NCBI GenBank assembly: GCA_030062745.1
Contig: CP099847.1
Location: forward strand, 24,352,923-24,416,922
Source of the DNA: Capitulum mitella
Taxonomy: Eukaryota; Arthropoda; Thecostraca; Pollicipedomorpha; Pollicipedidae
DNA: 64,000 nt
Direction: 5' to 3'
Below, in pieces: positions 960 through 63,688 of this stretch (within the stretch, counting starts at the first letter, position 1; the number at the start of each line of letters is the position of its first letter). The notes under the pieces were generated by a model. The model made no database searches, had not been told where the DNA came from, and saw nothing but the letters and a program-made list of their open reading frames with translations. Made by a program: the position numbers and the translations under genes.

Positions 960-1740
960 GCAATGTTTCATGTGTATTTTTGGGCATGGGCCAAGGCTAT
1001 TGGGCAGCAGCACTTACAATTGGTGGCATTCTAGGCACATGCCTCCCACTTCTCATAACTCCAGAAATCCACATAAATGCCAAACCATACTGGTACCAAA
1101 AGACATGCAACAAAGAAGAGTCCAATCAAAGGCATTTCGTGGACTTTTCAACCTTTCCAAAAGCAGCCTCCCGAAATGATCCAGCCATCCACAGCTTCCA
1201 CAACCAGGACGAGTTCGAGGCACGGAGCATCTCTGCGAGACAGATCAACACCAATTTTTGGGGTTCGACGTTAACAAAGGTGTCGTGAGATGATGACACT
1301 GAAAGATTTCCACTACAACAAAGCACTCTGGAAACTGGACATAAGTTGACCACATGCTGGAATGAAACAGGGAGGTGTACTGGGACTGAACAAGGACAGG
1401 CATGAGTGCCTGGGAGGGATGGAGATATAGAAGGAAAACTGAGACAGTACAGAGATATGGAGGAAGACCTGGATGAGGTAGGAAGAGAGATGAGGAGTGT
1501 AATGAGATGGTCATGGAGTGACCATCAATGGGACAGAATAGTGAAAAGAAACTGGGATGGGAAAGGGACAAGAAAAAGCATGAGGATGGGACATGGACAA
1601 GTAGAGATAGAAATGGGTCTGTGACAGAGGGCTGTGAAAGGGATAACAACATGGAACAGGAACAAGGACAAGGGACCTTAATGGGTCAGGGGCAAGGAAA
1701 TGATGGGGAGAGATACTGGAAAGATGAACAAGAATGAGGT
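960..1740 (-). repeat. Left arm of a degenerate inverted duplication
   Basis: Read on the minus strand, this segment matches 2483-3000 and then 3885-3990 read on the plus strand. Shared landmarks, in order, are a long run of tgtccc-type pyrimidine-rich DNA, a block around atctttcagtg followed by atctgtctc, and a block that could encode LLVPVWFGIYVDFW. The left arm keeps many CpGs near 1135-1290 where the right arm shows TG or CA, so the right arm has decayed more. The possible peptide on this arm runs MPLIGLFFVACLLVPVWFG and on to a stop, with a hydrophobic stretch. It may be an old exon or part of a repeat family. Confidence 0.55.
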
Positions 1741-2189
1741 AAAAGCAAAGAAAAGGGGTTTTGTGGAATGACTGAGATGAGGTGTTTTTATTATGGATGG
1801 AAATTTTTTTTCATGCTCTCATCCTTGTCCTGTGCATCATTATTTACACAATGTTTTGACTGACTGGTTCTCTGGTTGTCATTAGGTGTCAGTTTGACAA
1901 TTTGTCAATTTTGTGTTAATTGGTCCCAAGACACTGAAGTCTGGCACAGTAGAGCATGCATGATCAGAAGATCACTGACCAGTATGGAACAGAACAACCA
2001 TCATCAACAGAGAGCCACAATGGAAAGTAAGAGAGATAAAGGAAGCAGCACACATTGCACTGGCTGACATCCTATCACCAAACCAAGTGTAGACATCAGC
2101 CTAAGATGGCTCCTGATTGTCAAAAAATCCCCAAAAATACAGGGGATGAATAAGAGAGACTTCCAACCTCCCACAATACAACCTTCTTG

Positions 2190-2265
2190 ATAGTGCAGAT
2201 GTTAATGTACTGGGCTCAAAATCAGAAGGTCCCTGGTTCAAATCCCAAAAGTACTGTAAGTCTCT
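2190..2265 (+). repeat. tRNA-derived SINE head (RNA polymerase III boxes A and B)
   Basis: TAGTGCAGATG fits the box A consensus TRGYNNARNNG at every position, and GGTTCAAATCC, about 40 bases on, fits box B exactly. A weak anticodon-like stem (CTGG/TCAG) lies between them. The acceptor stem does not close, so this is a tRNA-like SINE head or dead tRNA copy and not a working tRNA gene. The SINE tail may run to about 2430 but its end cannot be set by eye. Confidence 0.5.
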
Positions 2266-2482
2266 CAAGGCTCTGCTGCATACATGGCTCACAGCCACCA
2301 CCCAGCCAGTCCTCAGGATGAAACACCTGGCATTTTGGCACTTTAACACCTGCTGACAGCCAGAGAATGAACTGGCTGAAATGTTGTGCAAATAACACAC
2401 AAGATGAGGATGGGATTCCAAAAACTTTTCCATCTGTAAAGAAAAGGGGTGTGACATACAGCCCCAAGGTACATCCCATCCC

Positions 2483-3000
2483 ATGTATAGCCCCTTCCTT
2501 TATTTAAACTCCATTCTTATTCCTCATTATCCCCCCCCCCCTCTCTCTCTCTGTCCCATCCACATCCCCTTCCTGTCCTTGTCCCATTACAATCCCTCTT
2601 CCTTATTCTTATTCCTTTTTATCTCCCTCCTTTTCACATCCTCATATGTCCTGTTACTGTCCCTTATTCCCTTACTTGTCCCTGTCCCATCCCTATACCT
2701 TTGCTTGTCCCTTTCCAATCCCAGTCTCTCTTCATCATTTTGTCCCATTGTCCATTTGGCCATCCCATTACTCTCATCTCTCTCCTTTTCCCATCCAGGT
2801 CTTCATCCATACATCTCCCTGCTCCATTCCCATGCAGCCAGTTTTTTGAGCTTTGAGACTGCAAAGGTCTTTCAGTGGCATCATATTTCACAACACATCT
2901 GTGGGCCACCAATCCTTCAAAGCTGGTAATGATCTGTCTCCAGATGATGTTCCATGCTGTAAATTCATAGTAGTTGTAGAGGTGGTGGGTGATTGGATCA
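2483..3000 (+). repeat. Right arm of the inverted duplication, with CT-rich tract
   Basis: This is the plus-strand counterpart of 960-1740. It starts with a pyrimidine-rich stretch including poly-C and (CT)n at 2531-2552, then the ctttcagtggcatcat block and gatctgtctcc block that align with the left arm. Homology breaks near 3005 and resumes at about 3885-3990, so roughly 870 bases have been inserted or are absent from the other arm. CpG sites of the left arm appear here as TG or CA. Confidence 0.55.
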
Positions 3001-3004
3001 CTTC

Positions 3005-3885
3005 AGGAATTATTTTGGGGAAGTTGTAAGGATAAAGATATCAAATGGGACACATAACACATTTGCATCTTTTCACAGACCACCTTTGCTATACAAATAT
3101 GCAGAAGAGCATATACACTTTCCTATGAAAGAAATAGGTGGTGACACTACTGGTATCACATCCAAAGGGAATGGAGTTGTATTTTACCTAAACAAATGCA
3201 ACCAGAAGAGTGGGATTATCTTCTTTACAATGCTTTTGCACCCAGGATGTCCTATGTACTACATACCATTTGATGACATCATCTGTCTAAGATACTAGAG
3301 GCCACAGGCCAATACAGAGGTATTCATGGAGTGTAATGTTAAGCCAGAGATGCAACCCAATGCCAAAAGCACAGTGTAGGATACCAGAGGCTGCATGCCC
3401 ATAAAAAGAGCAGTCAAACTGGGCTCTGTCCATGAGAGGTCAGGCTGCACATCTAAATAGGCTAGGCTGGGTTGCACTGGGTTGGGTCAGGTTTGGATAG
3501 GTTAGGTTGAGTTCAGTTAGACATCTGGTTAATCTTGTTTATTATACATGAAGTTAGGTTGACTGATGATTTAATAAGGCCCAAAATACCTCAACCTTGG
3601 AAATTGCTCTTTTAGAATTCCTTCCTGGAGTATTCCAGCTGAAACCAAACAGGTAAGGTGTGGCAAATAATGTCAAACAGAGTGACAATATTATTTCATA
3701 TTTTTCTGCATTCTCCATTTTAAAATGACATTATGCATCACTGTACTGCATGTATTTGGACAAAATGAGTCCTTAAAACCATCAGTTGTATGATCTTTAA
3801 ATGATTTCAACTAATTTTTGGCAAGAAAATCAGCATTTTGGTGGAAATGTGCAGCATGACTGCACAAAAAGCCTCCCATTAAACT
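3005..3885. other. CpG-poor DNA between matching parts of the right arm
   Basis: No gene was recognised. A 101-codon open frame at 2993-3298 (plus) has no family resemblance that I can name and no clear splice context. Near 3460-3520 there is a short degenerate run of ggttagg-like words, too imperfect to call telomeric. Confidence 0.3.
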
Positions 3886-3990
3886 ATTTTTGTACTACAC
3901 ATCTTTTGGTACCAATGTGGTTTGGAATCTATGTGGATTTCTGGCATTATGAGATGTCAGAGGCCTAAAATACCCAGCTGGTACAGCCAC
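3885..3990 (+). repeat. Outer part of the right inverted-duplication arm
   Basis: A block of about 55 bases here matches the minus strand near 1040-1120 at close to nine bases in ten. In the shared frame the peptides read LLVPMWFGIYVDFW here and LLVPVWFGIYVDFW there, with two of the base differences silent. A one-base indel lies just upstream of the conserved block. Confidence 0.5.
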
Positions 3991-4239
3991 ATCATATTCA
4001 GACATTGAAATGGGCATACAACCAGCATAAACTGTTAAGCCATGTCAATCACCTCCAGTCAGTCACTTGCATCAGTGGGCAATGCCACAAAATCTTATCT
4101 GCTACATGCTATGGCTACCTACTACACTGTAATGGCAGTTACTGATTGCAAAAACAAGGAAAGCTCAATAAAATGCATTATATTGACAGGAATGTGCTGC
4201 CAACTGAAGGTTTCATCATCTTTTGGATAAAGTCTACGT

Positions 4240-8839: not shown

Positions 8840-9062
8840 TTAGTTCGCTGAGTGCGGAGAGCTGCACCATGGCCTCCCCGGGTGCCTTATTTAGGTCGGT
8901 CAGTACAGAGAGCTACACCATGGCCTTCCCGGGTGCCTTATTTAGGTCGGTCAGTGCGGAAAGCTACACCATGGCCTTCCCGGGTGCCTTATTTAGGTCG
9001 GTCAGTGCGGAAAGCTACACCATGGCCTTCCCGGGTGCCTTATTTAGGTCGGTCAGTGCGCA
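8840..9062 (+). repeat. 51-bp minisatellite, about four copies, in POLH intron 4
   Basis: Units start at ggtgcc at 8881, 8932, 8983 and 9034, exactly 51 bases apart, with partial units at the ends. Each unit contains tttaggtcggtcag, which looks like a splice acceptor. The period is a multiple of three, so two plus frames stay open across it, but the array lies between exons 4 and 5 and matches no part of the polymerase. It is treated as intronic. Confidence 0.85.
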
Positions 9063-13334: not shown

Positions 13335-16059
13335 GGAGCCAGCGCTGGTGAACCTGGGCCTGTCGGCAGGCAAGTTCTCCGAGGCGCCGTCGCCGGGCTG
13401 CGGCAACATCGCCGCCATGTTCTCCCGGCTGCCGGCCGCGGCGCGCGCCTCACGGGCGGGACAGGCTGCCACGGCAGGCGCCTCACGGGCGGGACAGGCT
13501 GCCACGGCAGGCGCCTCACGGGCGGGACAGGCCGCCGTGGCAGGCGCCTCACGGGCGGGACAGGCTGCCACGGCAGGCGCCTCACGGGCGGGACAGGCCG
13601 CCACGGCAGGCGCCTCACGGGCGGGACAGGCTGCCACGGCAGGCGCCTCACAGGCGGGACAGGCTGCCACGGCAGGCGCCTCACGGGCGGGACAGGCCGC
13701 CACGGCAGGCGCCTCACGGGCGGGACAGGCTGCCACGGCAGGCGCCTCACAGGCGGGACAGGCTGCCACGGCAGGCGCCTCACGGGCGGGACAGGCTGCC
13801 ACGGCAGGCGCCTCACGGGCGGGACAGGCTGCCACGGCAGGCGCCTCACAGGCGGGACAGGCTGCCACGGCAGGCGCCTCACAGGCGGGACAGGCTGCCA
13901 CGGCAGGCGCCTCACAGGCGGGACAGGCCGCCACGGCAGGCGCCTCACGGGCGGGACAGGCTGCCACGGCAGGCGCCTCACGGGCGGGACAGGCTGCCAC
14001 GGCAGGCGCCTCACGGGCGGGACAGGCTGCCACGGCAGGCGCCTCACGGGCGGGACAGGCCGCCGTGGCAGGCGCCTCACGGGCGGGACAGGCCGCCGTG
14101 GCAGGCGCCTCACGGGCGGGACAGGCTGCCACGGCAGGCGCCTCACGGGCGGGACAGGCCGCCGTGGCAGGCGCCTCACAGGCGGGACAGGCCGCCGTGG
14201 CAGGCGCCTCACGGGCGGGACAGGCCGCCGTGGCAGGCGCCTCACGGGCGGGACAGGCTGCCACGGCAGGCGCCTCACGGGCGGGACAGGCCGCCGTGGC
14301 AGGCGCCTCACGGGCGGGACAGGCTGCCACGGCAGGCGCCTCACGGGCGGGACAGGCCGCCGTGGCAGGCGCCTCACAGGCGGGACAGGCCGCCGTGGCA
14401 GGCGCCTCACGGGCGGGACAGGCTGCCACGGCAGGCGCCTCACGGGCGGGACAGGCCGCCGTGGCAGGCGCCTCACGGGCGGGACAGGCTGCCACGGCAG
14501 GCGCCTCACGGGCGGGACAGGCCGCCGTGGCAGGCGCCTCACAGGCGGGACAGGCCGCCGTGGCAGGCGCCTCACAGGCGGGACAGGCTGCCGCGGCAGA
14601 TGCGGGACAGGCTGCGACGGGTTCGGTGGGGTCGCCAGAGGCCTGCCAGGGGGCTGATGTGGGGGCAGAGAAGGACGAGACGAATCGCACAGGAGCGTCA
14701 GAAGATAGCAGCGTGAGGACAGGTGATTCTGGAAAGATAGCACGAAATGCGAAAAAAGAGACCAGCGAAACGGAACATAATGAGATGGAGTTGGGAGACA
14801 ATGAGGTCCAAGCCGAAAAAGGCATAGAGGTTGTAGAAAATGTCTCGATATTCGGTGCAAACGCTGGTAAATGTGACGAGGAAACCACCGACGATACCAC
14901 GTGTCATGCGAGGTCCACGTCTTTGAGCCACAGTGGCGAACAGTGTCCCGGAAAGCGGTCATCAGACGACTCCGACATGAACGAACACACTTCTAAGGTC
15001 GCCAGAGCCCTGCCTGCGCATTCCTGCGCCCATGCTGACGACGCCGGCAGCGACCGGTCCACGCGCCTCCCGGAGCCGCCCACTGGTGGCACAACTGGAG
15101 CCTCCGGCGCTGTCCCCGCCGCCCGGGGCGGCTTCTTCGCGCGGAAGGAGCGAGAGATCAAAACCCGTCTGGCCGCCGCCGCCGCCGCCGCAGCCGCCGC
15201 TGAACCTGTCCCCGCCCCTCTTCCGGCGGCCGCCGAGCCGGCACCTCGGGTCACGGCCGGCCACAGAGGTGGCGGCAGCCCGGTCCGCCGCGGCCGCGGC
15301 CGCGGCCGGGTCGCCTCCAGCCCGCGGCGGCGGGGCCGCGGCCGGCCGGCGCTCGACGCCCGGCCGGCCGCCGGCTCACCGCCCGGGCCGTTCGCGCTGG
15401 AGCCGGAGGCGCTGGACCCGGAGGCGCTGGCCGCGCTGCCGCCGGAGCTGCGCGAGGAGATCGAGGCGCAGCTGGCGCGCCAGCAGCGCCGCCGCGAGCA
15501 GGGCCGGCGCTGGCGCGGCGGCATCCGGCGCTACCTGCGGGCCGCCGGCGAGGGAGCGGCCGCGGCCGCCGGCGCCGGCTCGGGGTCGGCCGCGGCGCGA
15601 GCCGGCGCGGAGCAGGCGGCGTCGAGCGCGCTCGAGTCGCTGCCGGGGCCCTCTGGTGTCGGAGCGGCGGCGGAGGAGGAAGAGGAGGCGCCTGCGGCCC
15701 TTGAATCTGTGGCCGGGCCGTCTGGAGTGACGCAGACGGCGACGAACGGGCCGGCCGCCGATCCCGGAGCGTCCGCCGCGGCCGCGGAGCCGCCGCTCGG
15801 CGACCGAGAGCCCGCCGCCGGCCAGCCTGCGCCCACTGACGCCTGCCCGCGCTGCGGCCAGCCAGTCTCGCCCTGGGAGCTGCCCGAGCACCTCGACTAC
15901 CACGTGGCGCTGGAGCTGTCGGAGCAGCCGACGCCGCCGCCGGCGCGGCCGCCGCCGGCGCGCGCGGCCCAGCCGGCGCGGCGCCGCGGCCGGCCCAGCA
16001 AGGCCGAGACGCTGCGCAGGGCGGGCGAGGTGCGCTCGATCGACGCCTTCTTCAGGTGA
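13335..16059 (+). CDS. POLH: DNA polymerase eta, last exon (end of little finger and regulatory tail)
   Basis: The first residues, EPALVNLGLSAGKFSEAP, match human SPPLTMLFLCATKFSASAP, closing the little finger. A tail of about 870 residues follows. It holds 35 copies of an 11-residue AGQAATAGASR-type repeat (13447-14601), an acidic Ser/Thr-rich stretch, GGFFARKEREIK (15124-15160), a run of ten Ala, and two AT-hook-like motifs (GRGRP near 15335, RRRGRPSK near 15980). Then come a UBM-like helix with the Leu-Pro core (DPEALAALPPELREEI, about 15412-15465), a UBZ zinc finger (CPRCG with EHLDYH, 15838-15918) and the terminal RSIDAFFR (16033-16056). The UBZ keeps the Asp that binds ubiquitin in human POLH. 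FF motifs of these kinds bind Rev1 and PCNA in known polymerases. The predicted protein is about 1,308 residues against 713 in human. The stop is TGA at 16057-16059. Confidence 0.92.
13447..14601 (+). repeat. 33-bp coding minisatellite, 35 copies, in the POLH tail
   Basis: Each 33-base unit encodes ASRAGQAATAG or a variant. Only two residues vary much: Arg or Gln at position 3 (CGG or CAG) and Thr or Val at position 9 (ACG or GTG). Higher-order order is visible: Gln-Thr units recur every third copy at units 7, 10 and 13, and units 25-29 are repeated in the same order as units 30-34. The last copy decays to AAADAGQ. At least four of the six frames stay open across the array, so only homology with the flanking polymerase sequence identifies the real frame. 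Confidence 0.95.
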
Positions 16060-17431: not shown

Positions 17432-20400
17432 GTGGGTGTCTGCGTGGGCGGCGCCGGCTCGGAGGCTGCGATCGATTTTCGCATGGCGACAGGCCTACTG
17501 CCGTGCCGTGGCCCCCCTGGAGGCGCTGACTAAGGGGTGATCCCGTCCCTAGGGGATCGATATTGTAGTCGGTCGGCGCCCCCTTCCGGTGCTCGCGCAC
17601 AGACATGATACGCCGGCACGCAATCCGCGTGCTAGGAAGGGTGATGGTTGTTTCAGAATGCGACTGGGACCCATTAAATGCGCCGGTTTAATGTACCCAT
17701 CCAATGCACACATTGGGGCACATAAAGGTTGCAGACAGAGGGGGCACAATCTACGCACGTAAACGCGTGAAGTACGTTTGGCAACGCGTTTGTGCACGCC
17801 TTTTATTTCATTTATTGGCATGTTCTCTATATCATGTCTTTTTCGGTGGACTGGATATGCAGAAGTTGGGACATGCTTGGCAGCGCTTATGTTTGCACGC
17901 CTCGGGGTCTTACGAACTGCAGGGACTGGACAAGGTCACGACTTACATCGTACAAAGACGCGACTCTGTGTACACTCATTCGATGTGCTCGCCCAGTCCC
18001 TGCCAAATGTCGTCGAGTTGCAAGCAGCGCGAAAGTGACTTAATTTGTTCAAACACTGCAGGATTTTGGCCATTTAATGTTGCATGGACTCGTGAGGTCG
18101 CTTGACTGGACGTCATTTATTTGATGTTATCAATCTGGGGCGTATAAAGGTTGCCTCTGGTGTGCATCGAATCCAAGATATCTCGTGTCGGCTGGCCTAT
18201 GCTTTACAGCTCTACTGTTCCTGCTCGTGAAATAATACGGTGATTTCATTCCCTTCCCCCGTCTCTCACATGTTTCTCTGTTTCTGTTCCTCTGTTTCTC
18301 TGTTGATATGCCTCATACGTTTCTCTGAACTGATAACACTGCGTCGTTGAAATTTTGTGGAATTGGCGCCTCCGTGGCCTGCCTGTTCCCAGTGGCCCAT
18401 CTCACGAGTTTAATCCACCACCTTCTGGCGGGATCGTAGTTAAGGTCGCCTGCAGCACAGAGGCTCTGTCGCCGTTTCGTGGAATCGTTCGAACGATATC
18501 GCGAAGCAGCGAACTCGTGGTTAAGAAATTCCACAGCGATGGGTTGAATTACTGGGCCTGTTGGCAGCTGTTCCGGTCGTTTTTGGTGTGGTCAGTCCGT
18601 TCAAACGCCACAGTCAATCTGTGGCCCCGCCCGCCTCCACACAGGCAGGGCAATGCCCATTGCCCAACGCATTAATCCGATTTCTGCTGCTTTCCCACCC
18701 ATCTCAGCGTCCTGATCGGCTCTTAGACTTTGTCGTATGGGGACACCGATGTCGACTTTCACAACATGGCCATGTTTCAAGTGACAGAATGTCACCCCGA
18801 GATGGCGGTACGGGTGGCTGTGCCGCAGCTAGGCGGCCTCGGGTCACGCGCCGACTCGGCCTGTTGGAGGTGTTTGTCGACGCTGTTCCCTGCAGTGGCG
18901 GTCTCCAGTCGCAACGCTCGGCGTCAGTGGTCGCGGGCAGGGTAAAGCCGCACTGGCGATCACTCCACGGTCTGACTGTTACACCCCGCACCGAGGGCAG
19001 TCGTCAGTCGCGGGAAACAGTCGCCCGGGGCCAGCGGGCGGACCTCGCCGGACTGTCCGTTCCCTGGCGCGGGTCACGGGTCGTTTCGGGAACCGTGTTG
19101 GCCTGGTCTTGGGGCTAAAACAATGGCATGAGTGACGGCCAATGGATCTTTGACCAGATGTTTTCGGTTTTCCTCGAAAATAAAGCGTAACTCGCATTGG
19201 AGCTTTTTAGTGTTTGGGATTTCGGGGGAAATCCGTAACGCAGTACATTGTGTTTTCTGTCCAATGCGGTCAGTTTTGATGTATTATTTCGGTAACTAAA
19301 CAGTCGCGCAGGTTGAGTGCTGAACATGGACGGGTTCTGTCAACCGTGCTGTCTACCATCGAATTTTCATCGCGGTCTCCTCGAACGCGAGCCAAAAGGT
19401 CGCTTCCGCTTCGGACGTTCTCTCGCTTTGTGCAGCCGACGAAGCCAGACGCTCTGCAACGTTTTGCCAGTCTAAAGAGCGCGTTCTTTTTGACCGGTTG
19501 CAACGGGTTCAGGGAGTCCCCAGCACGCGACGTCCACTGCGGTCAGCCAGAGACTCACCCCTCGTCTCCCACCGGGATCTGAAAGCTCACGGTGGCTTCT
19601 GCGACGGCTTGTCGGCATCTATGCTCGGCCAGTGCGGAGTCAGTTGCCGTGTTACGCGAAAGCATGTGTGGAGGATCGCGCTGCGTTGCTTGGAACACGG
19701 GCAAATCATTCTGAAATGAATCATTCATTCATGTGTCATGAAATTAATGGACGCCCCAGCACATGCAGGTAGCACGAAGCCCCGAACAGTGATATAGGAG
19801 TATCGACGCCTCTGTGTGCACGGCAGTCATGACCATCGTCTTCTGACGTATGAGGTTTACGTGATTTCGTGTATTTAGGTCTCAGTCTTTTCACTTTTGG
19901 GGCTGGAGTTTAGCGGGCTGTTGTGGTGCGGTATCCTGTCTTCTCTCCTCACTATACTTGTTTCATCAAACATTCACGTCCGACGCTCAACGATCGTTCT
20001 GTGTGTCGCCACTTGACAGCGAAGGACCTTTATTCCATCGTATTCCACTGTTACATGTTTGCCGTCGTTGGTGCGGCGAAAGGTACCGAAACTTTCGCCA
20101 CATTTGAAACCGTACATTTCGACCGTTTCTGCGCCGGTCTGTGTGTGTTGTAGCGCGCGTCATGCGGCCTCCCGAGCCGCGGCCGTGAGGCCGTCACCAG
20201 ACGTGCTCCAGGAGCTGCAGTGGAGCGTGGTCCGGCTGTCTCTCCGCCCGTAATGGCTCCGTCCAGTGTTTAGGGGACCTGGCGACTTTACTGTGCCCCG
20301 TATCGCGCCGCCGGCCGGATGCTTTTCGACTGGTCGGGATCAGACGTGATTAATGGGCCATTACCGCGGTAAACAAGGAGATCCGCTCGTTTTGGTGGCG

Positions 20401-23400: not shown

Positions 23401-26400
23401 AAAGGCATTAACAGTTAATTGTTCGCCAAGCAAGAACGATAACCAAATTTCTAGGTAGACCGTTGATTTGCTTGCGTTCGATTTCAGTTTTCATTTACGA
23501 AGTGCCCATGCAACTAGCATGGGTAGGTAGCAGAACTAATGCCTTCGTGCTTGATATGCATCTTTATTCCAGTAGTACTCATTTGCATATGGAACACAAT
23601 TTCAGCACCCCGCAGAGGAGCACTTAAATTAGTCATGCCAAATGTCGCTAGTCATGACAAACGCTTATTACACGGGCTTCGCAGCTATCACTCATTGCTG
23701 ATGCTCTGCCATACGGTCCATTGAAGCTACGGCATATTTGGCGCCGAACGATGTGCATGCTAACCAGATTCAGGAGTAAGTAGGTGCTAACATAATCCGG
23801 CGAAAACTTATCGTTTGGGTAAATGCTCGCTTCGTGCTGTCGTGATAGCCGCTGCGATTTTTTTTGCGGTCGTTCGATGCGATGCAGGCAATTTTTGACG
23901 GCGCCAGCACCAGCAGAAAAATCACAGCAAAAATTTTGGGAATTGGTCCATCTGAGTTGCGCGTGATGTTATACAACACTGCTGAACGACGAAAAAAGAA
24001 TCTGATGAGAAAATAGTCGAGGGCATGGCCGCTCCCGATATCCAATAACCGAATTGCCTATTGTTCTTTAAGGATGACGCTGCAGTGGTATCATGGATGA
24101 GTGAAACAATGACTTGCAAATGGAGTCGAGACCGGGAAGAGACTCGCCTAAAGAGCTGGAGTAAAAACGAACCTAGACCAGCGATCGGATGAGGAGGGAC
24201 GATTTGGACAGGCCCTGCTCCTGCCACTCGTGGCGGCCTTTTCCGGCGCCCCATCCGAGCGGCATGAGTACATGATGGCCGAATTATGCTCGCTGAGCGC
24301 CGTGAGTTATGACGCCATCTCCGCTGCAGCGGCGAAACGAGCCGCTCGGCGGGGGGTAGAAGGCGGCGTCGGCCGGCGACGGAGAACTGACGCCGGCACA
24401 GCACAGCCTCAGACTGGGGTCACACGGACTCAGGCACCGGCACAGCACAGCCGCAGACTGGGGGCACACGGACTCAGGCCCCGGCACAGCACAGCCACAG
24501 ACTGGGGTCACACTGACTCAGGCGCCGGCACAGCACAGCCGCAGACTGGGGTCACACTGATACAGGCGCCGGCACAGCACAGCCTCAGACTGGGGTCACA
24601 CTGACTCAGGCACCGGCATGGGCTGAGGCGCCTCCACAGGGACAGACAACAGGTTCAAACGCGGGCATGCACGCAAGCACGAGTGTTACACAGGCTCAGG
24701 GCGCTGGTACAAACGCAAAAACCTGGTCCACGGGCTCAGGCGCCGACACGGCAGTTTGTTCGCAATTCCTGTGCAACTGCCGGCCAGTAGAAGGACCTCC
24801 GCCGGCGCGGACGCGATTGGTTCTCGCATGACCGCGAGGGAGGAGATGACAGAAACGGACCCGGGCGCTTGTTTCCTGACGAGACACGTGCGTCAGAACG
24901 TCCCCCGGCGGGTGCATCGACCCACGGCATCTCCAGAGTGACGGCGGCCGGGTAGCTCCGTCCCAGGCCAGCAGTCCGCGCCCGGCGCACACACGTCCCT
25001 GACGGGAGCGACCGCCGCCGGCGCTGCGGCGCACGAGCGGACCTCTGTCACGATCTTCCAGCAGCGGCCGCCCCACCCGTCGCCTGAAACAGCGAGCCCA
25101 TCGTCCGGCGGGAGGCATCAGTTCGGCCCTCTCCGCCGCTGCGGACCGGGACGCCGCTGATTTTCGGCCGCGGAGCGAGACCGCTGGCGGCTTATTCTCC
25201 TCGGGCGGCGCTTCACGCCTTCATCCGGCGCCTTTGAATGAGCGGTGGCCTGGCTCGGCCCGGCTGCCGGTCCTTCGATGGCCGTTCATCAGACGGGTCG
25301 GCCGACGCCGCGGCCCAGCTGGCAGCCCCTGACGTCACAGGCCCGCCTGTCGGACGTCACTGACGTCATACGTCTGATCGCCGCGGCCAAACAGCAGCTG
25401 ATCTGGCAGCGCGTCTGGCATCGGCTTCACTGCCGCGGCGCCGGAGCCTGGCGTGACGTTTCTTCTGTCTGGAAAATGGGCGATGTTTTGCAGAGCCCGA
25501 TGGACTGTGAGTCTGCTTTTCCGCTTCTGAGTGGGTGGTTCAGGCTTTCCCGGCGGCGCAGAATGGAAGGTGGCCTGTTTATATCCAGCTTTACGCATCT
25601 GGGGACTCCTCGAAGAAGCTGTGGTAAGTGGAGGTTGGTTGACATCTTGCAAGATAAGTCCGCTATCTAGCTAAGACGGGCTTACCGGTGAGGTGATCTC
25701 ATCCGTAATTCGCTGAAGATGTGGCATCTCGGATATGTTTTGAGATCTGATTCCGTCCATAAGGAGAGCCCCACTCGCAACTGGGCAATTGCGAATTGTG
25801 CTGGGCCGTGACATCGTGTCAGGAGACAGGTGACGTCTTGCTGATTGCCAACTAACCGTACTCGCGGGGCCTTTTCCAAACTCCGCCTGCACATTGCCCA
25901 TTGTCCGCGTACAGAGCAGGAGCTCCTTCGACGCGTACGAGGGGCCGAGGTTCTTTACTCCTGCGTGCCATGCTCATGAATCGTTCACGATATGTGCAAT
26001 ATGCTTTTAACCGAAGGACGTTAGTGGTTGTAACTCGTTTAAAATTTGCTCTCCTCAATTTATAAATTCATGCCATTTCCGTTAAGCTGTCAATTGTTAG
26101 AACAACATTTGCAAGATGCATTGTCTTATACAAAATCTCCGTACATCGCGTTTCTGGCGTGCCTAAGGGGTTTTGCCTGCATTACGTAGCTGAAGTGGGC
26201 CCTGACCAGGACTTTACGCTAAAAGTCGAGGAATAGACACTGCGTGACAAAACTTTACAGAGAGAGGGGGTTGTAAAATCCCGGAAAATGCGTTGCGTAT
26301 TCTGTTGCAGACGTATTAAGAGATGGTGTTCGAAGAAAAAAGCCTTTCGATCCGCTCAGTCCTAGAGCTTAATAATGCTGCTTATTGTGCGTCTTTATCT

Positions 26401-28326: not shown

Positions 28327-28638
28327 CCGGCCTGCTGCTGGCGGCCAGCGTGGCGCTGGACGACTTCTACTTCTCCCGACACCCGCAGAACCTGGTGGTC
28401 CGCGAGGGCGCCAGCGTCGACCTCGAGTGCATGGTCTCCAACACCAGCTACATCCGCTTCTACTGGCAGCTGGACGGCGAGACGGTACTCAACTCGAGCC
28501 GCCGCTTCCAGCGCGGCAGCGACCTGCACATCACGCGCGTCGACCGCCGCCTGGACGCCGGCCACTTCACCTGCATCGCCATGAACGTGACCACCGGCTT
28601 CAGCCTCACCAGCCTGGCGGCCTCGCTCAACATCCAGT
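28327..28638 (+). CDS. PTK7: PTK7/off-track, exon 2 (end of signal peptide and Ig domain 1)
   Basis: Encodes the first Ig domain of a cell-surface receptor-like pseudokinase involved in planar polarity and Wnt or semaphorin signalling in animals. The domain runs DDFYFSRHPQNLVVREGASV, LECMVSN (first Cys), FYWQLDGE (core Trp), RRFQRGSDLHI and RLDAGHFTCIA (second Cys in DxGxFxC). Human PTK7 has VYWLLDG, RRFAQGSSL and RLQDSGTFQCVA in the same order. Three Asn-glycosylation sites (NTS, NSS, NVT) are visible. The exon ends NIQ plus one T at GTGAGT; T joins GG of exon 3 to make Trp, as in human NIKW. Confidence 0.93.
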
Positions 28639-41234: not shown

Positions 41235-42435
41235 CGCTGCACTCTTGTGACCAGACCTCGGGCCAGAGAACACTCCTGTGACCAGACCTCGGGCCAGAGT
41301 AACACTCCTGTGACCAGACCACCCCGGCCAGAGAACACTCCTGTGACCAGACCTCGGGCCAGAGTAACACTCCTGTGACCAGACCCCGGGCCAGGGTAAC
41401 ACTCCTGTGACCAGACCCCGGGCCAGGGTAACACTCCTGTGACCAGACCCCGGGCCAGGGTAACACTCCTGTGACCGGGCCCCGGGCCAGAGTAACACTC
41501 CTGTGACCAGACCCCGGGCCAGGGTAACACTCCTGTGACCGGACCACCCCGGACCAGAGTAACACTCCTGTGACCAGACCCCGGGCCAGGGTAACACTCC
41601 TGTGACCGGACCACCCCGGCCAGAGAACACTCCTGTGACCAGACCCCGGACCAGAGTAACACTCCTGTGACCAGACCCCGGGCCAGGGTAACACTCCTGT
41701 GACCGGACCACCCCGGCCAGAGAACACTCCTGTGACCAGACCTCGGGCCAGAGTAACATTCCTGTGATCGGGCCCCGGACCAGAGTAACATTCCTGTGAC
41801 CAGACTCCGGCCAGAGTAACACTCTTGTGACCAGACCCCGGGCCAGAGTAACACTCCTGTAACCAGACCCCGGGCCAGAGTAACACTCCTGTGACCAGAC
41901 TCCGGCCAGAGTAACACTCATGTGACGAGACCCCGGACCAGAGTAACACTTCTGTGACCAGACCCGGACCAGAGTAACACTCCTGTGACTAGACCCCGGC
42001 CAGAGAACACTCCTGTGACGAGACCGGGGCCAGAGTAACACTCCTGTGACCAGACCCCGGCCAGAGAAACACTCCTATGACCAGAACCGGACCAGAATGA
42101 CACTCCTGTGACCGGACCCCGGACCAGAGAAACACTCCTATGACCAGAGCTGGGCCTGAATGACACTCCTGTGACGAGCCTCCGGCCAGAGTAACACTCC
42201 TGTGACCAGACCCGGACCAGAGTGACACTCCTATGACCAGACCCGGACCAGAATGACACTCCTGTGACCAGACTCAGGCCAGAGCGGCACTCCTGTTATT
42301 AGGCCCGGATTGGTGCAACACTTCTGTGACCAGACTCAGGCCATAGTATTACTCCTGTGGCCAGACCCGGACCAGAGAAACACTCCTATGACCAGAGCCG
42401 GGCCATAGTAACACTCCTGTTATTAGAGCCGTACT
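41235..42435 (+). repeat. 1.2-kb array of a ~32-bp minisatellite in PTK7 intron 2
   Basis: Roughly 35 units of gtaacactcctgtgaccag followed by accccgggccagg. Copies are most alike at 41380-41900 and drift toward the right end, where cctatgaccag and gtgacgag variants appear. Three minus-strand frames of 230-350 codons run through it (VTLARG, QECYSGPG), but their repetition and different frames show they are not proteins. Confidence 0.92.
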
Positions 42436-54369: not shown

Positions 54370-54649
54370 CTTTGTCCCCCTCTCGGCACGGCTGGAGCCG
54401 ACAGCGCGGGTTGTCCCTGACCCCTGTCTCCCTCTCGGCACGGCTGGAGCCGACAGCGCGGGTTGTCCCTGACCCCTGCCCCGCTCTCGGCAGGGCTGGA
54501 GCCGACAGCGCGGGTTGTCCCTGACCCCTGTCCCCCTCTCGGCAGGGCTGGAGCCGACGACGCGGGTTGTCCCTGACCCCTGTCCCCCTCTCGACAGGGC
54601 TGAAGCCGACAGCTCGGGTTGTCCCTGACCCCTGTCCCCCTCTTGGCAG
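54370..54649 (+). repeat. 52-bp array repeating the acceptor of PTK7 exon 3
   Basis: The position equivalent to the first exon base occurs at 54390, 54442, 54494, 54546, 54598 and 54650 (the real one), exactly 52 bases apart. Each unit carries GGCTGGAGCCGAC and GCGCGGGT, matching the start of the exon (GGCTGGAGCCGATGGCGCGGGT), with a ccctctcggca-type tract before it. The three copies nearest the exon have an intact CAG acceptor; the two farthest read CAC. Confidence 0.93.
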
Positions 54650-54939
54650 GGCTGGAGCCGATGGCGCGGGTGCAGCTGCAGACGCCGCAGGAGCCGGACG
54701 CCGTCCGGCCCGGCTCGGACGTCGTGCTCCGCTGCCGGGCGGACGGCTCCTGGGGAGATCGGCCTACCAGTGGCTCCGCAACGGCGAGCGGCTGACGCGC
54801 GGGCCGCGGCTGGCGCTGCGCAACAAACGCCTCCAGCTGAGCGCCGTCGAGCCCGGCGACGGCGGCGCCTACTCGTGCCGCGCCACGAACGCCGCCGGCA
54901 CCGCGCGCAGCAACGGCTCCCTGCCGCTGGTCGTCCCCA
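54650..54939 (+). CDS. PTK7: PTK7/off-track, exon 3 (Ig domain 2)
   Basis: Starts W-LEPMARVQLQTPQEPDAVRP, GSDVVLRCRADGS (first Cys), then in another frame SAYQWLRNGERL (core Trp), RLQLSAVEPGDGGAYSCRATN (second Cys) and SLPLVVP-S. Human PTK7 has VTLRCHIDG, TYQWFRDG and HSGLYSCCAH in the same order. The exon is two bases too long or one short for its phases, and the change lies at about 54748-54760 (tcctggggag). With two bases fewer, the gap to YQW has the human length. Assembly error is the simplest cause. The exon is bracketed by tandem copies of both its acceptor and donor. Confidence 0.88.
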
Positions 54940-55380
54940 GTGAGTCTGACCGGGAAGCGGGGAACTCTGGTCGTCCCCAGTGAGTCTGACCGAGGGGCGG
55001 GGAACTCTGGTCGTCCCCAGTGAGTCTGACCGAGGGGCGGGGAACTCTGGTCGTCCCCAGTGAGTCTGACCGAGGGGCGGGGAACTCTGGTCGTCCCCAG
55101 TGAGTCTGACCGAGGGGCGGGGAACTCTGGTCGTCCCCAGTGAGTCTGACCGAGGGGCGGGGAACTCTGGTCGTCCCCAGTGAGTCTGACCGAGGGGCGG
55201 GGAACTCTGGTCGTCCCCAGTGAGTCTGACCGAGGGGCGGGGAACTCTGGTCGTCCCCAGTGAGTCTGACCGGGGCGCACGGAACTCTGGTCGTCCCCAG
55301 TGAGTCTGACTGGGAAGCGGGGAACTCTGGTCGTCCCCAGTGAGTCTGACCGGGGTGCACGGAACTCTGGTCGTCCGCCA
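54929..55380 (+). repeat. 40-bp array repeating the donor of PTK7 exon 3
   Basis: The GTGAGT donor at 54940 recurs every 40 bases to 55340, eleven sites in all, each in the same context GGTCGTCCCCA-GTGAGTCTGACC. The last twelve or so exon bases are part of the unit, so the array starts inside the exon. Most middle units are identical, which points to recent expansion. Reading on past the first donor meets TGA in the second unit. Confidence 0.95.
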
Positions 55381-55687
55381 GGCTGTTGCGCTGGTGGCGC
55401 TGATGAGACGGGGGCTGGAAACGAAATTTGCCCCGCAAGTGGAAACGCGTTGAAGTTCCTCTTCATGCGTTCGAGATGTACGGGTGAAATATCGAAGTGG
55501 TGTGTAGTGTCTTGGACTGGTACGTGTGTACTGTTGTCTTCTATCGGTATTATTGTTCTCTTTAATCGCAGTTCGCACCGTGGACCATACAAGCTCGGCA
55601 GGTGTGACGCACCGAACGTTGCAAAGAACAGCTTACGATGTGCACCGCATATTTCCGCCGGGGCTGATGTCCAGTTTCTGACTCAGT

Positions 55688-55824
55688 TCTGTGACTCAGT
55701 TTACTCCATGTTTATGGCTGCGCTCTGTTCGCGGCAGGCCCCGACTCGGCTCGGAGTTCTGTGACTCAGTTTACTCCATGTTTATGGCTGCGCTCTGTTC
55801 GCGGCAGGCCCCGACTCGGCTCGG
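55688..55824 (+). repeat. 70-bp direct duplication spanning the acceptor of PTK7 exon 4
   Basis: Two copies of a unit from gttctgtgactcagtt through gcggcag and GCCCCGACTCGGCTCGG. The second holds the true acceptor (exon starts 55808); the first has an identical acceptor at 55738. The copied part covers the first 17 exon bases. The copies look identical over their whole shared length. Confidence 0.93.
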
Positions 55825-55949
55825 CTGGTGCTGGCGCCCCGGGACCAGCTGGTGCGCCGCGGGGACACGGCCCGGTTCGACTGCCGCTACCAGGGCGCCG
55901 ACTCGGTCAGCTGGCACTTCGGCGAGCTCGGCCCACTCGCCAACCACGG
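55808..55949 (+). CDS. PTK7: PTK7/off-track, exon 4 (first half of Ig domain 3)
   Basis: Reads PDSARLVLAPRDQLVRRGDT, ARFDCRYQGADSVSWHFGEL and GPLANHG. Human PTK7 has ESFARVVLAPQDVVVARYEE and AMFHCQFSAQPPPSLQWLFED here, so the first Cys and the core Trp are kept. It enters with GC completing a Ser codon begun by the A of exon 3 and leaves in phase 2 at GTGAGC. Splitting an Ig domain near its middle is usual in this gene family. The reading frame is intact. Confidence 0.93.
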
Positions 55950-56223: not shown

Positions 56224-59210
56224 AAAATCCCCATCAGCGAGAATTTCGCCGGCAAGTTCGCGCGAACGCAATTTAAAACGACCCTGCGAATCGCGAGCGA
56301 TCTTCTCCCCGGGCCGTCATCCCAGTTCTGCGTCACTTCCCCCGGAGAACGCGGTCCATCAAACACGAAGCGCCGCCGCCCGCTCCCGTTTCCGTCGGGC
56401 CGGGCAATTCGGCTAATGGCGCCGGGCGGCCCGGCCGGCCGCCGACGTCGTCCGTCGCTGCCGACGGAGACCGCGGACGCCAGAGGACAGCCCACGGACG
56501 GACCAGGGCTGACGGCGACGGCGGCTGGCGTCTTGACGAATCGGACTCATTGCCAGCGGCGCCGCCCGCGCCGCTGGGTAGATGCCTGTCTTGTGTCCAA
56601 TGTTTTTCGGAAACAGTTTCTCGGTACACACCAACGTGACCGTTTTTCTCAGTTCTCATCTCTGCTAAAATTACGGTACATGAGTATTGCCAATGACACA
56701 AAAATCTTACCTGTGCTCTGTGACCAAGCTTTCTCGTGGTGTGCGATGCAGAACAAACCGCAATTCGTAAATCATAGGCACGATATGTCACCGCTTCGTC
56801 ATGGCATGCCCCGCCCTTGTAAGCTAACCTAAAGCAAACAGAACCGACGCGCAGGTTCGCTTTCATCACCGCCAAACCACACCCCAAAAGTTCCGCAAAA
56901 TTTCCAGCTCGACCGCCACCGGGACCGCAGCCGCGCCGCGGCCGCCGGCCCGTCACGGCCGGCCTGATTCACGGCGACTGCGTGACGCGCGGCCCGTCAC
57001 GCCGACCGCCGGCCGTCACCGGGAGTCGACGCCGCTAAATCACGGCGGCCGTCCGCGCCGCGCCTCATGGGCCGTGCCCGGCGGCGTTCCGGGAAGCGGC
57101 CAGGCGCGCGCTGCCCACTGGCGACCGCACCGTGGCGACGCGAACCGGCCGCTCGTTTGCCGTCCAGGCGGCCCGCCTGACGGCCGGCGGCGCTATTTCG
57201 GCCCGCGCTCTCATGGCGTCGAGGAGACTCCGGCGAGACGGCCCCGTGCGGACGAGACGCTCCCACTCGAGCGGCGATGAGCTCCGAGGGTCTTCAGCGT
57301 CCGCGGGACCGAGTAATGCCGGCGTGCTGTGCCAAGACGGCCGCCGTTATGTAAGCAGAACGAGTAGGAGCCCGCTGTCGGTCCGAGCATAAAATCTACG
57401 TGGTCCTCCTTTGGATTTATCGTCGTCTTTCTACCAGCATGCCAGGGCGATTACCGGACGTCCAACGGATATGGACGCATCAGTCATTCGTGGTCTCTTA
57501 TAAGAGTTTCTACGTATTGCATTAGCCCCAGATCATCTCCAGTTCCCCGTAAGGATTTCGGATCCCTGCGCGGGCATTATGTATTCTCCAAGGTCGTCAG
57601 CATCGCCAAACATGAACAGTTCCACTTATGATTTGATGATCCCTGTACAAGCACTACGCGTCACCATGTTGTGCGTGGGACGGGTGCCTCTGAACTTTTT
57701 ATGCGGAAAACAGTATCTTCCCAGCCATGACAGGAAATTCGTTGCATACCATGTGAGTATTGGGGCCGTATGCAATTCTGTTCAAATTGGCGAAAAATTT
57801 CCGAAACCAGCGATAATGCTGCATTGCCGAGGAGGTTAGTTTATTTGCGTTTCTGCCTGCCATCCCCCAGCTGAACATCACTTCCCTTACTACCTCTTCA
57901 GATGAAGACGAACACGGAAATTAGCCCGAACACCCGCGACCGGCGCCGCCTCGCCGTCGACGTGGAAATACGGCCGGTCTCGCCAACTTATTTTGACGTG
58001 CGTCCCGCCGGCAAATTGCAGGCGTGCAGAGCGGAGACGAGACGGCAGAGTGCACTCACCACCCCCCATCTGTTTACCAGCCCGATCGAAGCCGTCCGGC
58101 CTCGGGCGAACGGCAGCAGCGCTCGGCAATAGTCGCCGGCTAAACGCTGTTATGATGGCCCGCCGACGCCGGCGACTCCCGTCGGCCGGATCTGAGGCGC
58201 CGCTCGTCCGGCCGTCGGCGCGGCGGCGGCGTCGGCGTGTAATGGCGCGTCCGACGGGCGGCCGCGCCGCAGAAGTTGCGTAAAGTGCGGCGGCCGTCCG
58301 CCGGCGGGCCGGGGGAATCATTCGACCGGCGGACGGGCGCGGCTGCCTCGGTCGGCCGCTGCCGAGCGCGGGGGCCGTCAGCGGCGCCGATACCGGCCCG
58401 GAACGGCGCCGGGAGATGGCCGGAGGCGGTGGCGCCCGCCCCGTAACGGCCGAGGGTCGTCTGCCGGGCGGCTCGTCCGAAATGGAGTACCGCCGCTGCT
58501 TCTCCGGCTATAGATGGGACGAGCGGGTTCCCGTTGCCCAGATACCGCGTTCAGAGACCGAATGGTGATTGGAAAGTGGGGCGCGAAAACTTTTGGGTGC
58601 TCATCGAGCTCCGATGCATCGGAGCTCTTTCCTCGCATATCGTTAACTGAGGGCTTAACACGCGTTCGTACCGCATTGGAGAATGGAAGACAGCGTTTGC
58701 TCGGATTTTCTCGCAGAGTGTAGAAGGGTTTTCTGCTTGGCGTGATAGTTTGACTAATGGCGACCTCGTTTGTGTCAAATTTCTCTCTTCTTCAGTACGT
58801 CTGTTTTCACAAGTTCTTCCCGATTTTTCCTTAATTCGTCATACACACAGAGCTTCCACTTTCAACACCTATATTCTTGACGTCAAACACTGACCACTCA
58901 CAGCACTAGCACTTCACTACATCACGAGCGTTACGTGGCCCACCACATGTTGAGTCGGTAGATACACCGAGAACTACTGAACGAAAACCGGTCCTGCTTA
59001 TATATATACTACCTACGAACGGAAATGATGAAAGGAGATGGTGCAGTTATGATATCATATACAACCAATCAGAAGGCGTTGTGCAATCCGAATATACTGG
59101 AAAGAGTAGGTTTGAACCAGTGAACCAACGTGAGAACGTACGAAATTCAGAGAACTGCCTGATGTAAGGCGGATACAAGAGTTCTGAAGTTTCCGCGGGT
59201 GTAAGCTATT

Positions 59211-61654
59211 TTAACCCGCCCCAGACTGGGGGGGGGCAGTTGACTGCCCCCCTGAGGTTTTTTCTGGGATTGCGAGAGAACGAACAAACACAGAGTCACG
59301 AAACTTTGTGTACCTTTTGCTTCATCATTTTTACACCTTGTTCCAAAATTTTGACCTCAGGTCAGGTCAGGTGCTTGACCTAGGCTAGGTCAAACAGACC
59401 TATGTCCAAAAACATTTAGCGCCCTGTAACTTTTTCGCAAAACAAGATATCACAATAATAATTTCAGGAATTCGTGATCTTGATAGATGCAACAAATCTG
59501 ATATCTCGGATTTTTCGGAATTTTCCGGGTCATTGAGCTAAGGTCAAGCCCATTTTTAACCCGTCCCCGACTGGGGGGGCAGTTGACTGCCCCCCCCTGA
59601 GGTTTTTCTGGGATTGCGGGAGAACCAACAGACAGAGTCACGAAACTTTGTGTACCTTTTGCTCTATCAATTTTACGTCTCGTGTCAAAATTTTGACCTC
59701 AGGTCAGGTCAGATGCCTGACCTAGGTCAGGTCAAACAGACCTATGTCAAAAAAAGTTTAGCGCCCTCTGATTTTTTTCGCAAAACAAGATATCTCAATA
59801 ATACTTTCAGGGATTAGTGATCGTGAGGGATGCAACAAATCTGCTATTTCGGATTTTTCGGAATTTTCCGGGTCATTGACCTAAGGTCAAGCCCATTTTG
59901 TAACACATGTCGCCGTTTTTTTCGGAAATTGACGGAATATTCCATAACGTTTTTAGTGTGGAGTGAAGCAGACATCTAGTTACCGTCATTGGGCAAAGTA
60001 TCAGTGACTTCCAGCCATTGACCTGAGGTCAGGTCACCAGTAACTGTAGTGGGCCAAAATGTACCACCGTGAAAATCGACGATGAATTACGCAGAATGGG
60101 TAGAAAGTAGCCGAACTAACTTGCACAGACGTAATTAATACCAGGAACCTCAAAAAGTTTGAAAAAGTAGCATATTTTGGAAATAAACAAGCTCTCGCGA
60201 ATAAAGCTCCGCCAACTTTGTAGATTGGCAACTAATCAATTTTTCCAAAATTTAAGCATGAGAAACCATCACAAGAACCACAAAGATCAATCAAATTTGC
60301 ATAGATCGTCTTTTTTCGCGAAAATAAAGGAACGCTAAAATTAGTTCCCGTCAATTTGGTACCGCATACGGCAGCGGCGCACAGTGACGGCTGACGGGAG
60401 AATGACGGTGTCTTTAACTCAACGTTTCGGCGTATATATTGAACAAATCTGAGGAAATTAGACGTGTATCGGCATCTGCGGACATTTACTGGTGCGCTGG
60501 TGCCTTTACCTATGTGTTATTAGTCACAGCCCTTGAGATTCAGGCCATTTCTCGGTCTCATGCAGTCGGCTATGAGAAAACATATATAAGGCGTAAATTG
60601 GCTTACATATTATCTAAAACTAAAAATGAGACCAGTTTCGAGCTCTACTCGTGACAGGCTTTCCAACGGTATGCTTATTTTTATCGTGCGACCAACCGTT
60701 CGTGAGTTAGAGGGGGGCAGTCAACTGCCCCCCCCCAGTCGCCGGTGTTCGGGACGGACCGACGGTCGTGCGCGGGTTAAGACATGTCGTCCTTTTTCGC
60801 AAATTGACGGAATATTTCATAACATTTTTAGTGTGGAGTCAAGCAGACATCTAGTTACCGTAATTGGGTAAAGTATCAATGACTTCCAGCCATTGACCTG
60901 AGGTCAAGTCACGAATAACTGTAGTGAGCCAAAATGTACCACCGTCAAAACCAGCGATGAATTACTCATAATGGGTAGAAATTGGCCGAACTGGCTTGCA
61001 CAGACCTAAGTAATACCAGGAACCTCAAAAAGTTTTAAAAAACCGCATATTTTGGGAATAAACAGGCTCTCGCGATTAAAGCTCCGCCAGTTGTGTAGAT
61101 TGGTAACTGATGCATTTTTCCAAAATTTAAGCATGGAAAATCATCACAAGAACCACTAAGATAAATACAGTTTATATGGATTGGCTTTTCTCGCGAAAAT
61201 AAACGAACGCTAAAATTAATTCCCGTCAATTTCCTACTGCATACGACTGCACCGCACGCCGACAGCGGGCGCGAAAATTGATGTGTCTTTAACTCAACGT
61301 TTCGGCGTATATATTGAACAAATTCGAGAAATTAGATTGTATCGGCATTTGCGGACCTTTACTTGTGCCCTGGTGCCTTCAACGATGCGTTATTAGTCAC
61401 AGCCCTTGAGATTCAGGCCGTTTCTCGGTCTCATGCAGTCGGTTGTGAGAAAACATATATAGGACGTAAATTACTTACACATTATCTAAAACTGAAACTG
61501 AGGCCACTTTCGAGCTCTACTTGTCACAGGCTTTCCGACGGTGTGCTTATTTTTATCGTGCGACCAACCGTTCGCGAGTGGAGGGGGGCGGCCAACTGCC
61601 CCCCCCCCCCAGTCGCGCATGATCGTAACTGACCGGCGGTCGTGCGCGGGTTAA
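59211..61654. mobile_element. TTAA-ended non-autonomous DNA transposon (piggyBac-like), internally duplicated A-A-B-B
   Basis: The left tip is TTAACCCGCCCC and the right tip, read inward, is TTAACCCGCGCAC; both sit on TTAA, the piggyBac target. Further in, each end has GACTGGGGGGGG with CAGTTGACTG, so the inverted termini are longer than the tips but differ by about 30 bases. Between them lie two copies of a ~345-base unit A (59211-59555, 59556-59903) and two of a ~875-base unit B (59904-60780, 60781-61654). Internal TTAA motifs mark the A1/A2 and B1/B2 joins. No transposase frame is present. B1 and B2 are alike but clearly diverged. Confidence 0.7.
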
Positions 61655-62434: not shown

Positions 62435-62574
62435 GCGTTACTCGGTGCTGGAGAACGGCAGCCTGCTGGTGGTGGCCGCCGACGACGACGATCAGGGCTG
62501 GTACCACTGCCTGGGCCGGCGGGGCGGAGACGACCCGGCGCCGCAGCAGTACAGCGCGCGGCTTCAGCTGGCCT
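62435..62574 (+). CDS. PTK7: PTK7/off-track, exon 5 (second half of Ig domain 3)
   Basis: Reads RYSVLENGSLLVVAADDDDQ, GWYHCLGRRGGDD and QQYSARLQLA. Human PTK7 has ATVFANGSLLLTQVRPRNAG, IYRCIGQGQRG and LEATLHLA, so the DxGxYxC motif with the second Cys is in place. The acceptor is cgtgcctgcag. The first G completes a Gly codon from exon 4, and the exon leaves in phase 1 at GTGAGT. Frame intact. Confidence 0.93.
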
Positions 62575-63515: not shown

Positions 63516-63688
63516 ACCTGGAGCCGCTGACGGACCGCTCCGTGGAGCCGGCGCCGTCCCTGCAGGGCGTGCACGTTGTGCCTGAGGGCAGGCCGTGCCG
63601 GTTGACCTGCCTGGCGCCGGAGGGGCTGCCGCCACCGACCGTCCGCTGGCAGGAGCCCGGAGGACGTGACGTCACCGACCGCAGCCAG
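63516..63688 (+). CDS. PTK7: PTK7/off-track, exon 6 (start of Ig domain 4)
   Basis: Reads LEPLTDRSVEPAPSLQGVHV, PEGRPCRLTCLAPEGLPPPT, VRWQEPGGRDVTDRSQ. Human PTK7 has EDMPLFEPRVFTAGSEERVTCLPPKGLPEPSVWWEHAG in this place, so the first Cys and core Trp are kept. It enters completing a Tyr codon (T plus AC) and leaves in phase 0 at GTGGGC. The second half of Ig4, the later Ig domains, the membrane segment and the pseudokinase domain lie beyond the window. Confidence 0.9.

What the first reader, a model, noticed from the sequence alone, without database searches (positions are those of the whole stretch)
54929..55380. Eleven tandem copies of one exon's 5' splice site
The donor of PTK7 exon 3 is repeated every 40 bp with its last ~12 exon bases and first ~10 intron bases unchanged, so the spliceosome meets eleven equivalent donors in a row. 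Since 40 is not a multiple of three and TGA appears in the second unit, only the first site (or rare spacings) gives a normal protein. Either strong position preference operates or a share of transcripts is lost, and copy number could set expression level.
Basis: partly seen in the sequence, partly recalled or inferred. Interest (0 to 1): 0.82.

Follow-up and report, generated by a model that had tools for sequence, protein, structure and literature searches.

The report
Minisatellite repeating a PTK7 splice donor
In an invertebrate (probably barnacle) PTK7 gene, a short stretch spanning the end of an exon and the start of the intron is repeated eleven times in a row, so eleven equal splice donors follow each other; this is a known kind of DNA repeat, described in lancelets and in the human ABCA7 gene, seen here in another animal.

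Summary
In detail: eleven copies of CTGGTCGTCCCCA|GTGAGTCTGAC, 40 bp apart, with introns starting at 54940-55340. The gene is a PTK7 ortholog (best PDB match 'Inactive tyrosine-protein kinase 7', 5.3e-76). The pattern is broader than reported. The same exon's acceptor lies in a 52-bp array (six copies, four with AG), and the next exon's acceptor is doubled. A PTK7 paralog on contig C7 has a single donor at this exon but arrays over other splice sites: exon 4 donor, exon 6 acceptor, exon 14 donor. Splice sites are not special targets: 6 of 56 PTK7 sites lie in arrays, against 12% of intron bases and 0-0.1% of exon-core bases; in eight kinesin genes 0 of 58. So this is an intron-type minisatellite that runs over an exon edge. 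Precedents: lancelet 'mirages', reported not to disturb splicing (PMC3087553, PMC3902484), and the human ABCA7 VNTR, where canonical splicing exists beside a form retaining one unit, and length goes with lower expression (PMC5954066). Most likely the exon-proximal donor is used here; dosage control by copy number is possible but untested. New member of a known kind.

The parts
54927..55381 (+). 40-bp minisatellite spanning the 3' end of PTK7 exon 3 and its 5' splice site; 11 full donor copies (intron starts 54940+40k, k=0..10) and a partial 12th unit without donor
54650..54939 (+). PTK7 exon 3 (second Ig domain) if the last acceptor and the first donor are used; the assembled exon has 2 nt more than the paralog near 54755, so its frame is broken in this assembly
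   Evidence: the paralog's exon 3 matches Pfam Ig families, the second half of this exon alone (60 aa) matches none
54373..54671 (+). 52-bp array over the 3' splice site of the same exon; six junction copies (exon starts 54390, 54442, 54494, 54546, 54598, 54650), of which the two most upstream read CAC instead of CAG
55685..55824 (+). 70-bp perfect duplication over the 3' splice site of exon 4 (exon starts 55738 and 55808)
55808..55949 (+). PTK7 exon 4 (start of the third Ig domain)
28327..28638 (+). PTK7 exon 2 (first Ig domain); donor CATCCAGT|GTGAGTACG
62435..62574 (+). PTK7 exon 5, single acceptor and donor
63516..63688 (+). PTK7 exon 6, single acceptor and donor (exons 7-16 continue beyond the window, in L006)

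Best explanation
The array is an intron-type minisatellite whose repeat unit happens to straddle an exon-intron boundary (a 'mirage' in the lancelet literature). Tandem duplication of a 40-bp piece, 13 exon bases plus 27 intron bases, followed by slippage or unequal exchange, made eleven identical donors. Shown: the anatomy, the gene, that the paralog has one donor at this exon, and that arrays cover splice sites of these two genes about as often as introns and almost never exon cores. Inferred: the array arose after the gene duplication; such arrays are tolerated because each duplication leaves an intact splice site beside the exon; and the spliceosome mostly uses the exon-proximal donor. Use of later donors would give a frameshift or the TGA at 54981-54983, hence probably nonsense-mediated decay, so the array costs little unless leakage is large.
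For: Eleven identical donors. In the two PTK7 copies 6 of 56 splice sites lie in arrays of period 20 or more, against 12.2% and 12.4% of intron bases and 0% and 0.1% of exon-core bases (cores leave out 25 bases at each exon end); with period 10 or more it is 7 of 56 against 12.9% and 14.7%. By a junction-copy measure it is 7 of 56 against 11.3% and 15.6% of background positions. Arrays sit on different splice sites in the two paralogs, with a shared neighbourhood only at the exon 3 acceptor. Of the six periods at splice sites, four (40, 52, 70, 38) are not multiples of three and two (24, 33) are, as expected without selection for frame. The proteins are constrained (dN 0.18, dS 0.46 over 667 codons of exons 5-12 and 14-16). 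Of 132 combinations of the acceptors and donors of exon 3 and the acceptors of exon 4, the only one open through exon 6 uses donor 1. Precedents for regular splicing: lancelet globins (passages of PMC3087553) and Adh, TnC, PGBD5 (passage of PMC3902484). Human ABCA7: the 25-bp VNTR includes the exon 18 donor; canonical splicing exists beside retention of one unit (passages of PMC5954066).
Against: No RNA data here. Recalled splicing literature (no call): when identical donors compete, the intron-proximal one often wins, which would predict use of donor 11 and loss of protein. In kinesin genes no splice site is in an array (0 of 58, about 3 expected), a hint that such arrays may often be removed by selection and so may not be neutral. 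In ABCA7 the alternative transcripts together exceeded the canonical one in 90% of BA10 brain samples. In the assembled sequence the canonical reading stops at codon 151, inside exon 3, because of the 2-nt discrepancy, so this copy might be broken.
Confidence: 0.75

Rival explanations
1. The array is a dosage tuner: each extra donor diverts a share of transcripts into frameshifted, NMD-sensitive mRNA, so copy number sets PTK7 level and varies among individuals.
For: Donors are equal in sequence and only the first gives the normal protein. In human ABCA7, VNTR length correlates with lower expression and more exon 19 skipping.
Against: In ABCA7 the retention of one unit did not depend on VNTR length, and no effect of length on NMD was seen. 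Lancelet mirages are reported not to generate aberrant mRNAs. No RNA or population data here.
Confidence: 0.12
2. The extra donors and G-rich spacers act as an intronic splicing enhancer: several U1 snRNPs and G-run-binding proteins strengthen definition of the exon, and the array is kept for that.
For: Each unit holds GTGAGT, and units 2-8 hold the G-runs GAGGGGCGGGG; the donor lacks G at -1 and scores tied 8th to 10th of 27 PTK7 donors, so it might profit. The role of G-runs is recalled, from no call.
Against: The paralog has the same donor core (CCA|GTGAGT) in a single copy without an array. Arrays are no more frequent at splice sites than in introns.
Confidence: 0.05
3. The array is an assembly artefact, or its length is wrong by collapse or expansion.
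For: The exon between the two arrays has a 2-nt discrepancy against the paralog, as noisy-read assemblies can show. Units 2-8 are identical.
Against: The outer units differ from the inner ones, and arrays with diverged units occur elsewhere in the window and in the paralog. An artefact would not be expected to spare exon cores.
Confidence: 0.08

Closest known systems
Mirage minisatellites of lancelets (Adh3, globins BflGb6 and BflGb9, TnC, PGBD5)
   Same: Tandem repeats that span an exon-intron boundary and duplicate 5' or 3' splice sites; unit sizes overlap (Adh3 10-72 bp); both ends of exons affected (passages of PMC3087553, and PMC3902484)
   Different: Other animal; here two arrays bracket one exon and eleven units are identical at the splice site; splicing and instability were not tested here
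Human ABCA7 intron 18 VNTR
   Same: VNTR unit includes the donor of the exon beside it; use of the second donor gives a frameshift and a premature stop (passages of PMC5954066)
   Different: 25-bp unit, about 12 to 427 copies; that VNTR begins at the GT, whereas here 13 exon bases belong to the unit; expression and splicing were measured there, not here
Subtle tandem splice sites (TassDB2, PMC2878309, search listing only)
   Same: Alternative splice sites close together
   Different: 2-12 nt apart there, 40 nt here; not minisatellites

Membership tests
Mirage minisatellite | Tandem repeat whose units span an exon-intron boundary | tested here: met
   54927-55381 spans the exon 3 end; 54373-54671 and 55685-55824 span exon starts; boundaries predicted from homology, not from RNA
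Mirage minisatellite | Units carry copies of the splice signal | tested here: met
   11 of 11 full units have the donor; 4 of 6 copies of the exon 3 acceptor have AG
Mirage minisatellite | Regular splicing in spite of the copies | not testable with these tools
   needs RNA; only frame consequences were computed
Mirage minisatellite | Length instability between alleles or in the soma | not testable with these tools
   one assembly only
ABCA7-type donor VNTR with dosage effect | Repeat length correlates with mRNA level | not testable with these tools
   no population or RNA data
PTK7 receptor pseudokinase | Kinase-like domain closest to PTK7 | tested here: met
   6vg3 at 5.3e-76, next best 9.9e-50; PF07714 at 6.5e-61; query joined from exons 14-16
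PTK7 receptor pseudokinase | Seven Ig domains and a transmembrane segment before the pseudokinase | tested here: inconclusive
   exons aligned along a human sequence recalled from memory, including a transmembrane stretch; three Ig segments passed Pfam (exon 2, exon 10, and exon 3 as its paralog copy), the second half of exon 3 itself matched nothing, the rest were not scanned

The most novel reading that the evidence does not exclude
The PTK7 array works as a length-variable rheostat: in some tissues or alleles later donors are used, and array length sets the share of productive PTK7 mRNA, while the paralog keeps a single donor at this exon as an unregulated backup.
Probability: 0.1. Interest if true: 0.7.

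Novelty: new member of a known kind. Interest (0 to 1): 0.4.

Why it matters
It carries a phenomenon described in lancelets, with one well-studied human case, into what is probably a crustacean. It offers a natural experiment: eleven identical donors in one gene and one donor at the same exon of its paralog, so the effect of position alone on splice-site choice can be read from ordinary RNA-seq. It also suggests that such arrays need no special mechanism beyond the density of minisatellites in introns.

Tried and rejected
Special targeting of splice sites: not supported in these genes (6 of 56 sites against 12% of intron bases; 0 of 58 kinesin sites against 5.3% of intron positions). In one search, 29 of 32 possible joins were placed, three were not, and several of the 29 are weak. 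Arrays in general carrying donors: donor-like 9-mers number 21 in 29,558 strand positions inside arrays and 247 in 558,046 outside, in 22 pieces of 294 kb; 11 of the 21 are this array and 2 the paralog's exon 4 array, so there is no general excess. Selection on the splice core from the pattern of variation: the variable columns of the array lie away from the splice site, but few events seem to lie behind them, so I draw nothing from it. Frame rescue by combining splice sites: of 132 combinations 44 are neutral in size, and one is open through exon 6 with exon 5 in frame, namely the exon 3 acceptor one unit upstream (54598) with donor 1 and the last exon 4 acceptor. It depends on the 2-nt discrepancy in the exon and replaces the first half of the Ig domain with unrelated residues, so I take it as chance. 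A first run of this test ended exon 2 one base short; its combination result is withdrawn, and the separate donor and acceptor readings are not affected. Organism: 16 contigs, longest 45.52 Mb, 477 Mb in all fit the stalked barnacle Capitulum mitella (16 chromosomes, longest 45.43 Mb, 483 Mb; passages of PMC8416341; another assembly of 512 Mb, passages of PMC11331182), but this is inference; an rRNA search gave no answer twice. Published cases in barnacles: none among the titles shown (10 of 389 papers, 10 of 293); one search found no paper with the phrase 'mirage minisatellite'. Papers were seen as listings or passages only, none in full.

Full report
Observation. The window holds a 40-bp tandem array at 54927-55381. 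Eleven units carry CTGGTCGTCCCCA|GTGAGTCTGAC, with introns that would start at 54940, 54980 and so on to 55340. The 13 exon bases and the first 11 intron bases are identical in all eleven; units 2-8 are identical throughout; the first and the last three full units differ in the spacer.

Gene. The assembled genome is 477 Mb in 16 contigs and the window is C9:24352923-24416922. The kinase-like domain, joined from exons 14-16, matches the PDB entry for inactive tyrosine-protein kinase 7 at 5.3e-76, next best 9.9e-50, and Pfam PF07714. Exons 2 and 10 match Pfam Ig families, as does exon 3 of the paralog; the second half of exon 3 itself, 60 residues, matches none. I numbered 15 exons, e2 to e16, from homology. 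A first exon was not located, and all junctions are predicted; none is supported by RNA.

More arrays in the same gene. The acceptor of the same exon lies in a 52-bp array with six copies of the junction; four have AG and the two most upstream have AC. The acceptor of exon 4 is present twice, 70 bp apart. An 18-bp array of 2.1 copies lies over the exon 11 acceptor without copying the junction. Two further arrays lie near but not on splice sites: 15 bp after the exon 8 donor and about 42 bp before the exon 16 acceptor.

The paralog. A second PTK7 lies on C7, in keeping with the ancient genome duplication reported for barnacles (abstract start, passages). Its exon 3 ends in the same donor core, CCA|GTGAGT, in a single copy. 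It carries arrays at other sites: exon 4 donor (38 bp, 3 junction copies by the measure used), exon 6 acceptor (24 bp, 6 copies), exon 14 donor (33 bp, 13 copies), and a 62-bp array just upstream of the exon 3 acceptor, with a 60-bp repeat beside it that resembles that acceptor. The donor array of the window therefore probably arose after the duplication; loss in the paralog is not excluded.

Are splice sites special? Not in these data. In the two genes 6 of 56 splice sites lie in arrays of period 20 or more, against 12.2% and 12.4% of intron bases, and 0% and 0.1% of bases in exon cores, which leave out 25 bases at each exon end. With period 10 or more it is 7 of 56 against 12.9% and 14.7%, cores 0.2% and 0.1%. 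By another measure, 18-mers around the junction that recur within 800 bp, it is 7 of 56 against 11.3% and 15.6% of background positions; one of the seven, the exon 3 acceptor of the paralog, rests on one distant copy. In eight kinesin genes it is 0 of 58 sites against 5.3% of intron positions, about 3 expected; 29 of 32 joins were placed, and some of them are weak. Thirteen 10-kb stretches at one arbitrary coordinate have 3.2% of bases in arrays of period 20 or more, the window 10.4% and the paralog region 8.6%. So this gene pair is rich in minisatellites, and its splice sites are hit about as often as its introns.

Consequences. Only donor 1 gives the normal reading: donor 2 adds 40 nt and shifts the frame, donors 3-11 include the TGA at 54981-54983. 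From the phase set by exon 2, the exon 3 acceptor one unit upstream shifts the frame, and those two to five units upstream run into a stop. In the paralog, four upstream acceptors of exon 6 read open and in frame and two do not, and exon 14 reads open for 85 residues past its first donor. The assembled exon 3 has 2 nt more than its paralog near 54755, and the canonical reading stops at codon 151, inside exon 3. Of 132 splice combinations one is open through exon 6: the acceptor one unit upstream with donor 1, which would skip round the discrepancy at the price of the first half of the Ig domain. As other exons are constrained (dN 0.18, dS 0.46 over 667 codons of exons 5-12 and 14-16), I take the 2 nt as a likely assembly error, but a real broken allele is possible.

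Mechanism. Shown: the anatomy and the comparison with the paralog. Inferred: slippage or unequal exchange made the array; each duplication leaves a good splice site next to the exon, so it is tolerated; the exon-proximal donor is mostly used. Recalled work on competing donors (no call) would rather predict the intron-proximal donor in simple substrates, and this is the strongest point against my reading. The published cases favour it: lancelet mirages are reported not to disturb splicing (passages). In human ABCA7 canonical splicing exists beside retention of one unit; that retention did not depend on length, while length went with lower expression and more exon 19 skipping, and alternative forms together could exceed the canonical one in brain (passages).

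Known or new. The kind is known: mirages and the ABCA7 VNTR. New here, as far as my searches show, are the animal, the bracketing of one exon by an acceptor array and a donor array, and the contrast between paralogs. The two searches with the word barnacle that could have shown a case listed none among the ten titles each showed. The organism is inferred to be Capitulum mitella or a relative from chromosome number and lengths.

Noticed in passing
L032-L034 (paralog, C7:6529001-6559000), reverse-complement coordinates 25413-26103: Exon 14 donor array of the paralog: 33-bp units reading in frame as VRLMVLQYSDW; the frame stays open for 85 residues past the first donor, so later donors could insert peptide repeats into the pseudokinase domain.
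   Followed up: partly
L032-L034, reverse-complement coordinates 19942-20110: Exon 6 acceptor array of the paralog, 24-bp units; four upstream acceptors read open and in frame, adding 8 residues each, two further ones meet stops.
   Followed up: partly
54740-54770: Exon 3 body has 2 nt more than the paralog; the only open splice combination uses the acceptor copy at 54598. Assembly error, broken allele, or a real compensation.
   Followed up: partly
8840-9060: 51-bp x 4.3 array with four donor-like 9-mers on the + strand, upstream of exon 2; could belong to an unfound first exon or be chance.
   Followed up: no
13445-14599 and 41240-42420: Long minisatellites (33 bp x 35 and 32 bp x 37) on either side of exon 2.
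   Followed up: no
1-4000: CpG observed/expected 0.23 and GC 0.44, against 1.0-1.26 from 12001 on.
   Followed up: no
L006:6310-6654: 39-bp x 8.8 array ending about 42 bp before the acceptor of kinase exon 16, with CTGAC motifs that could serve as branch points (motif recalled).
   Followed up: no
G000:C16:5450234-5453643: Four matches to the same part of the myosin head in a row, as mutually exclusive exons of a muscle myosin gene would give (recalled).
   Followed up: no
59209-59904: A 343-bp unit present twice in tandem.
   Followed up: no
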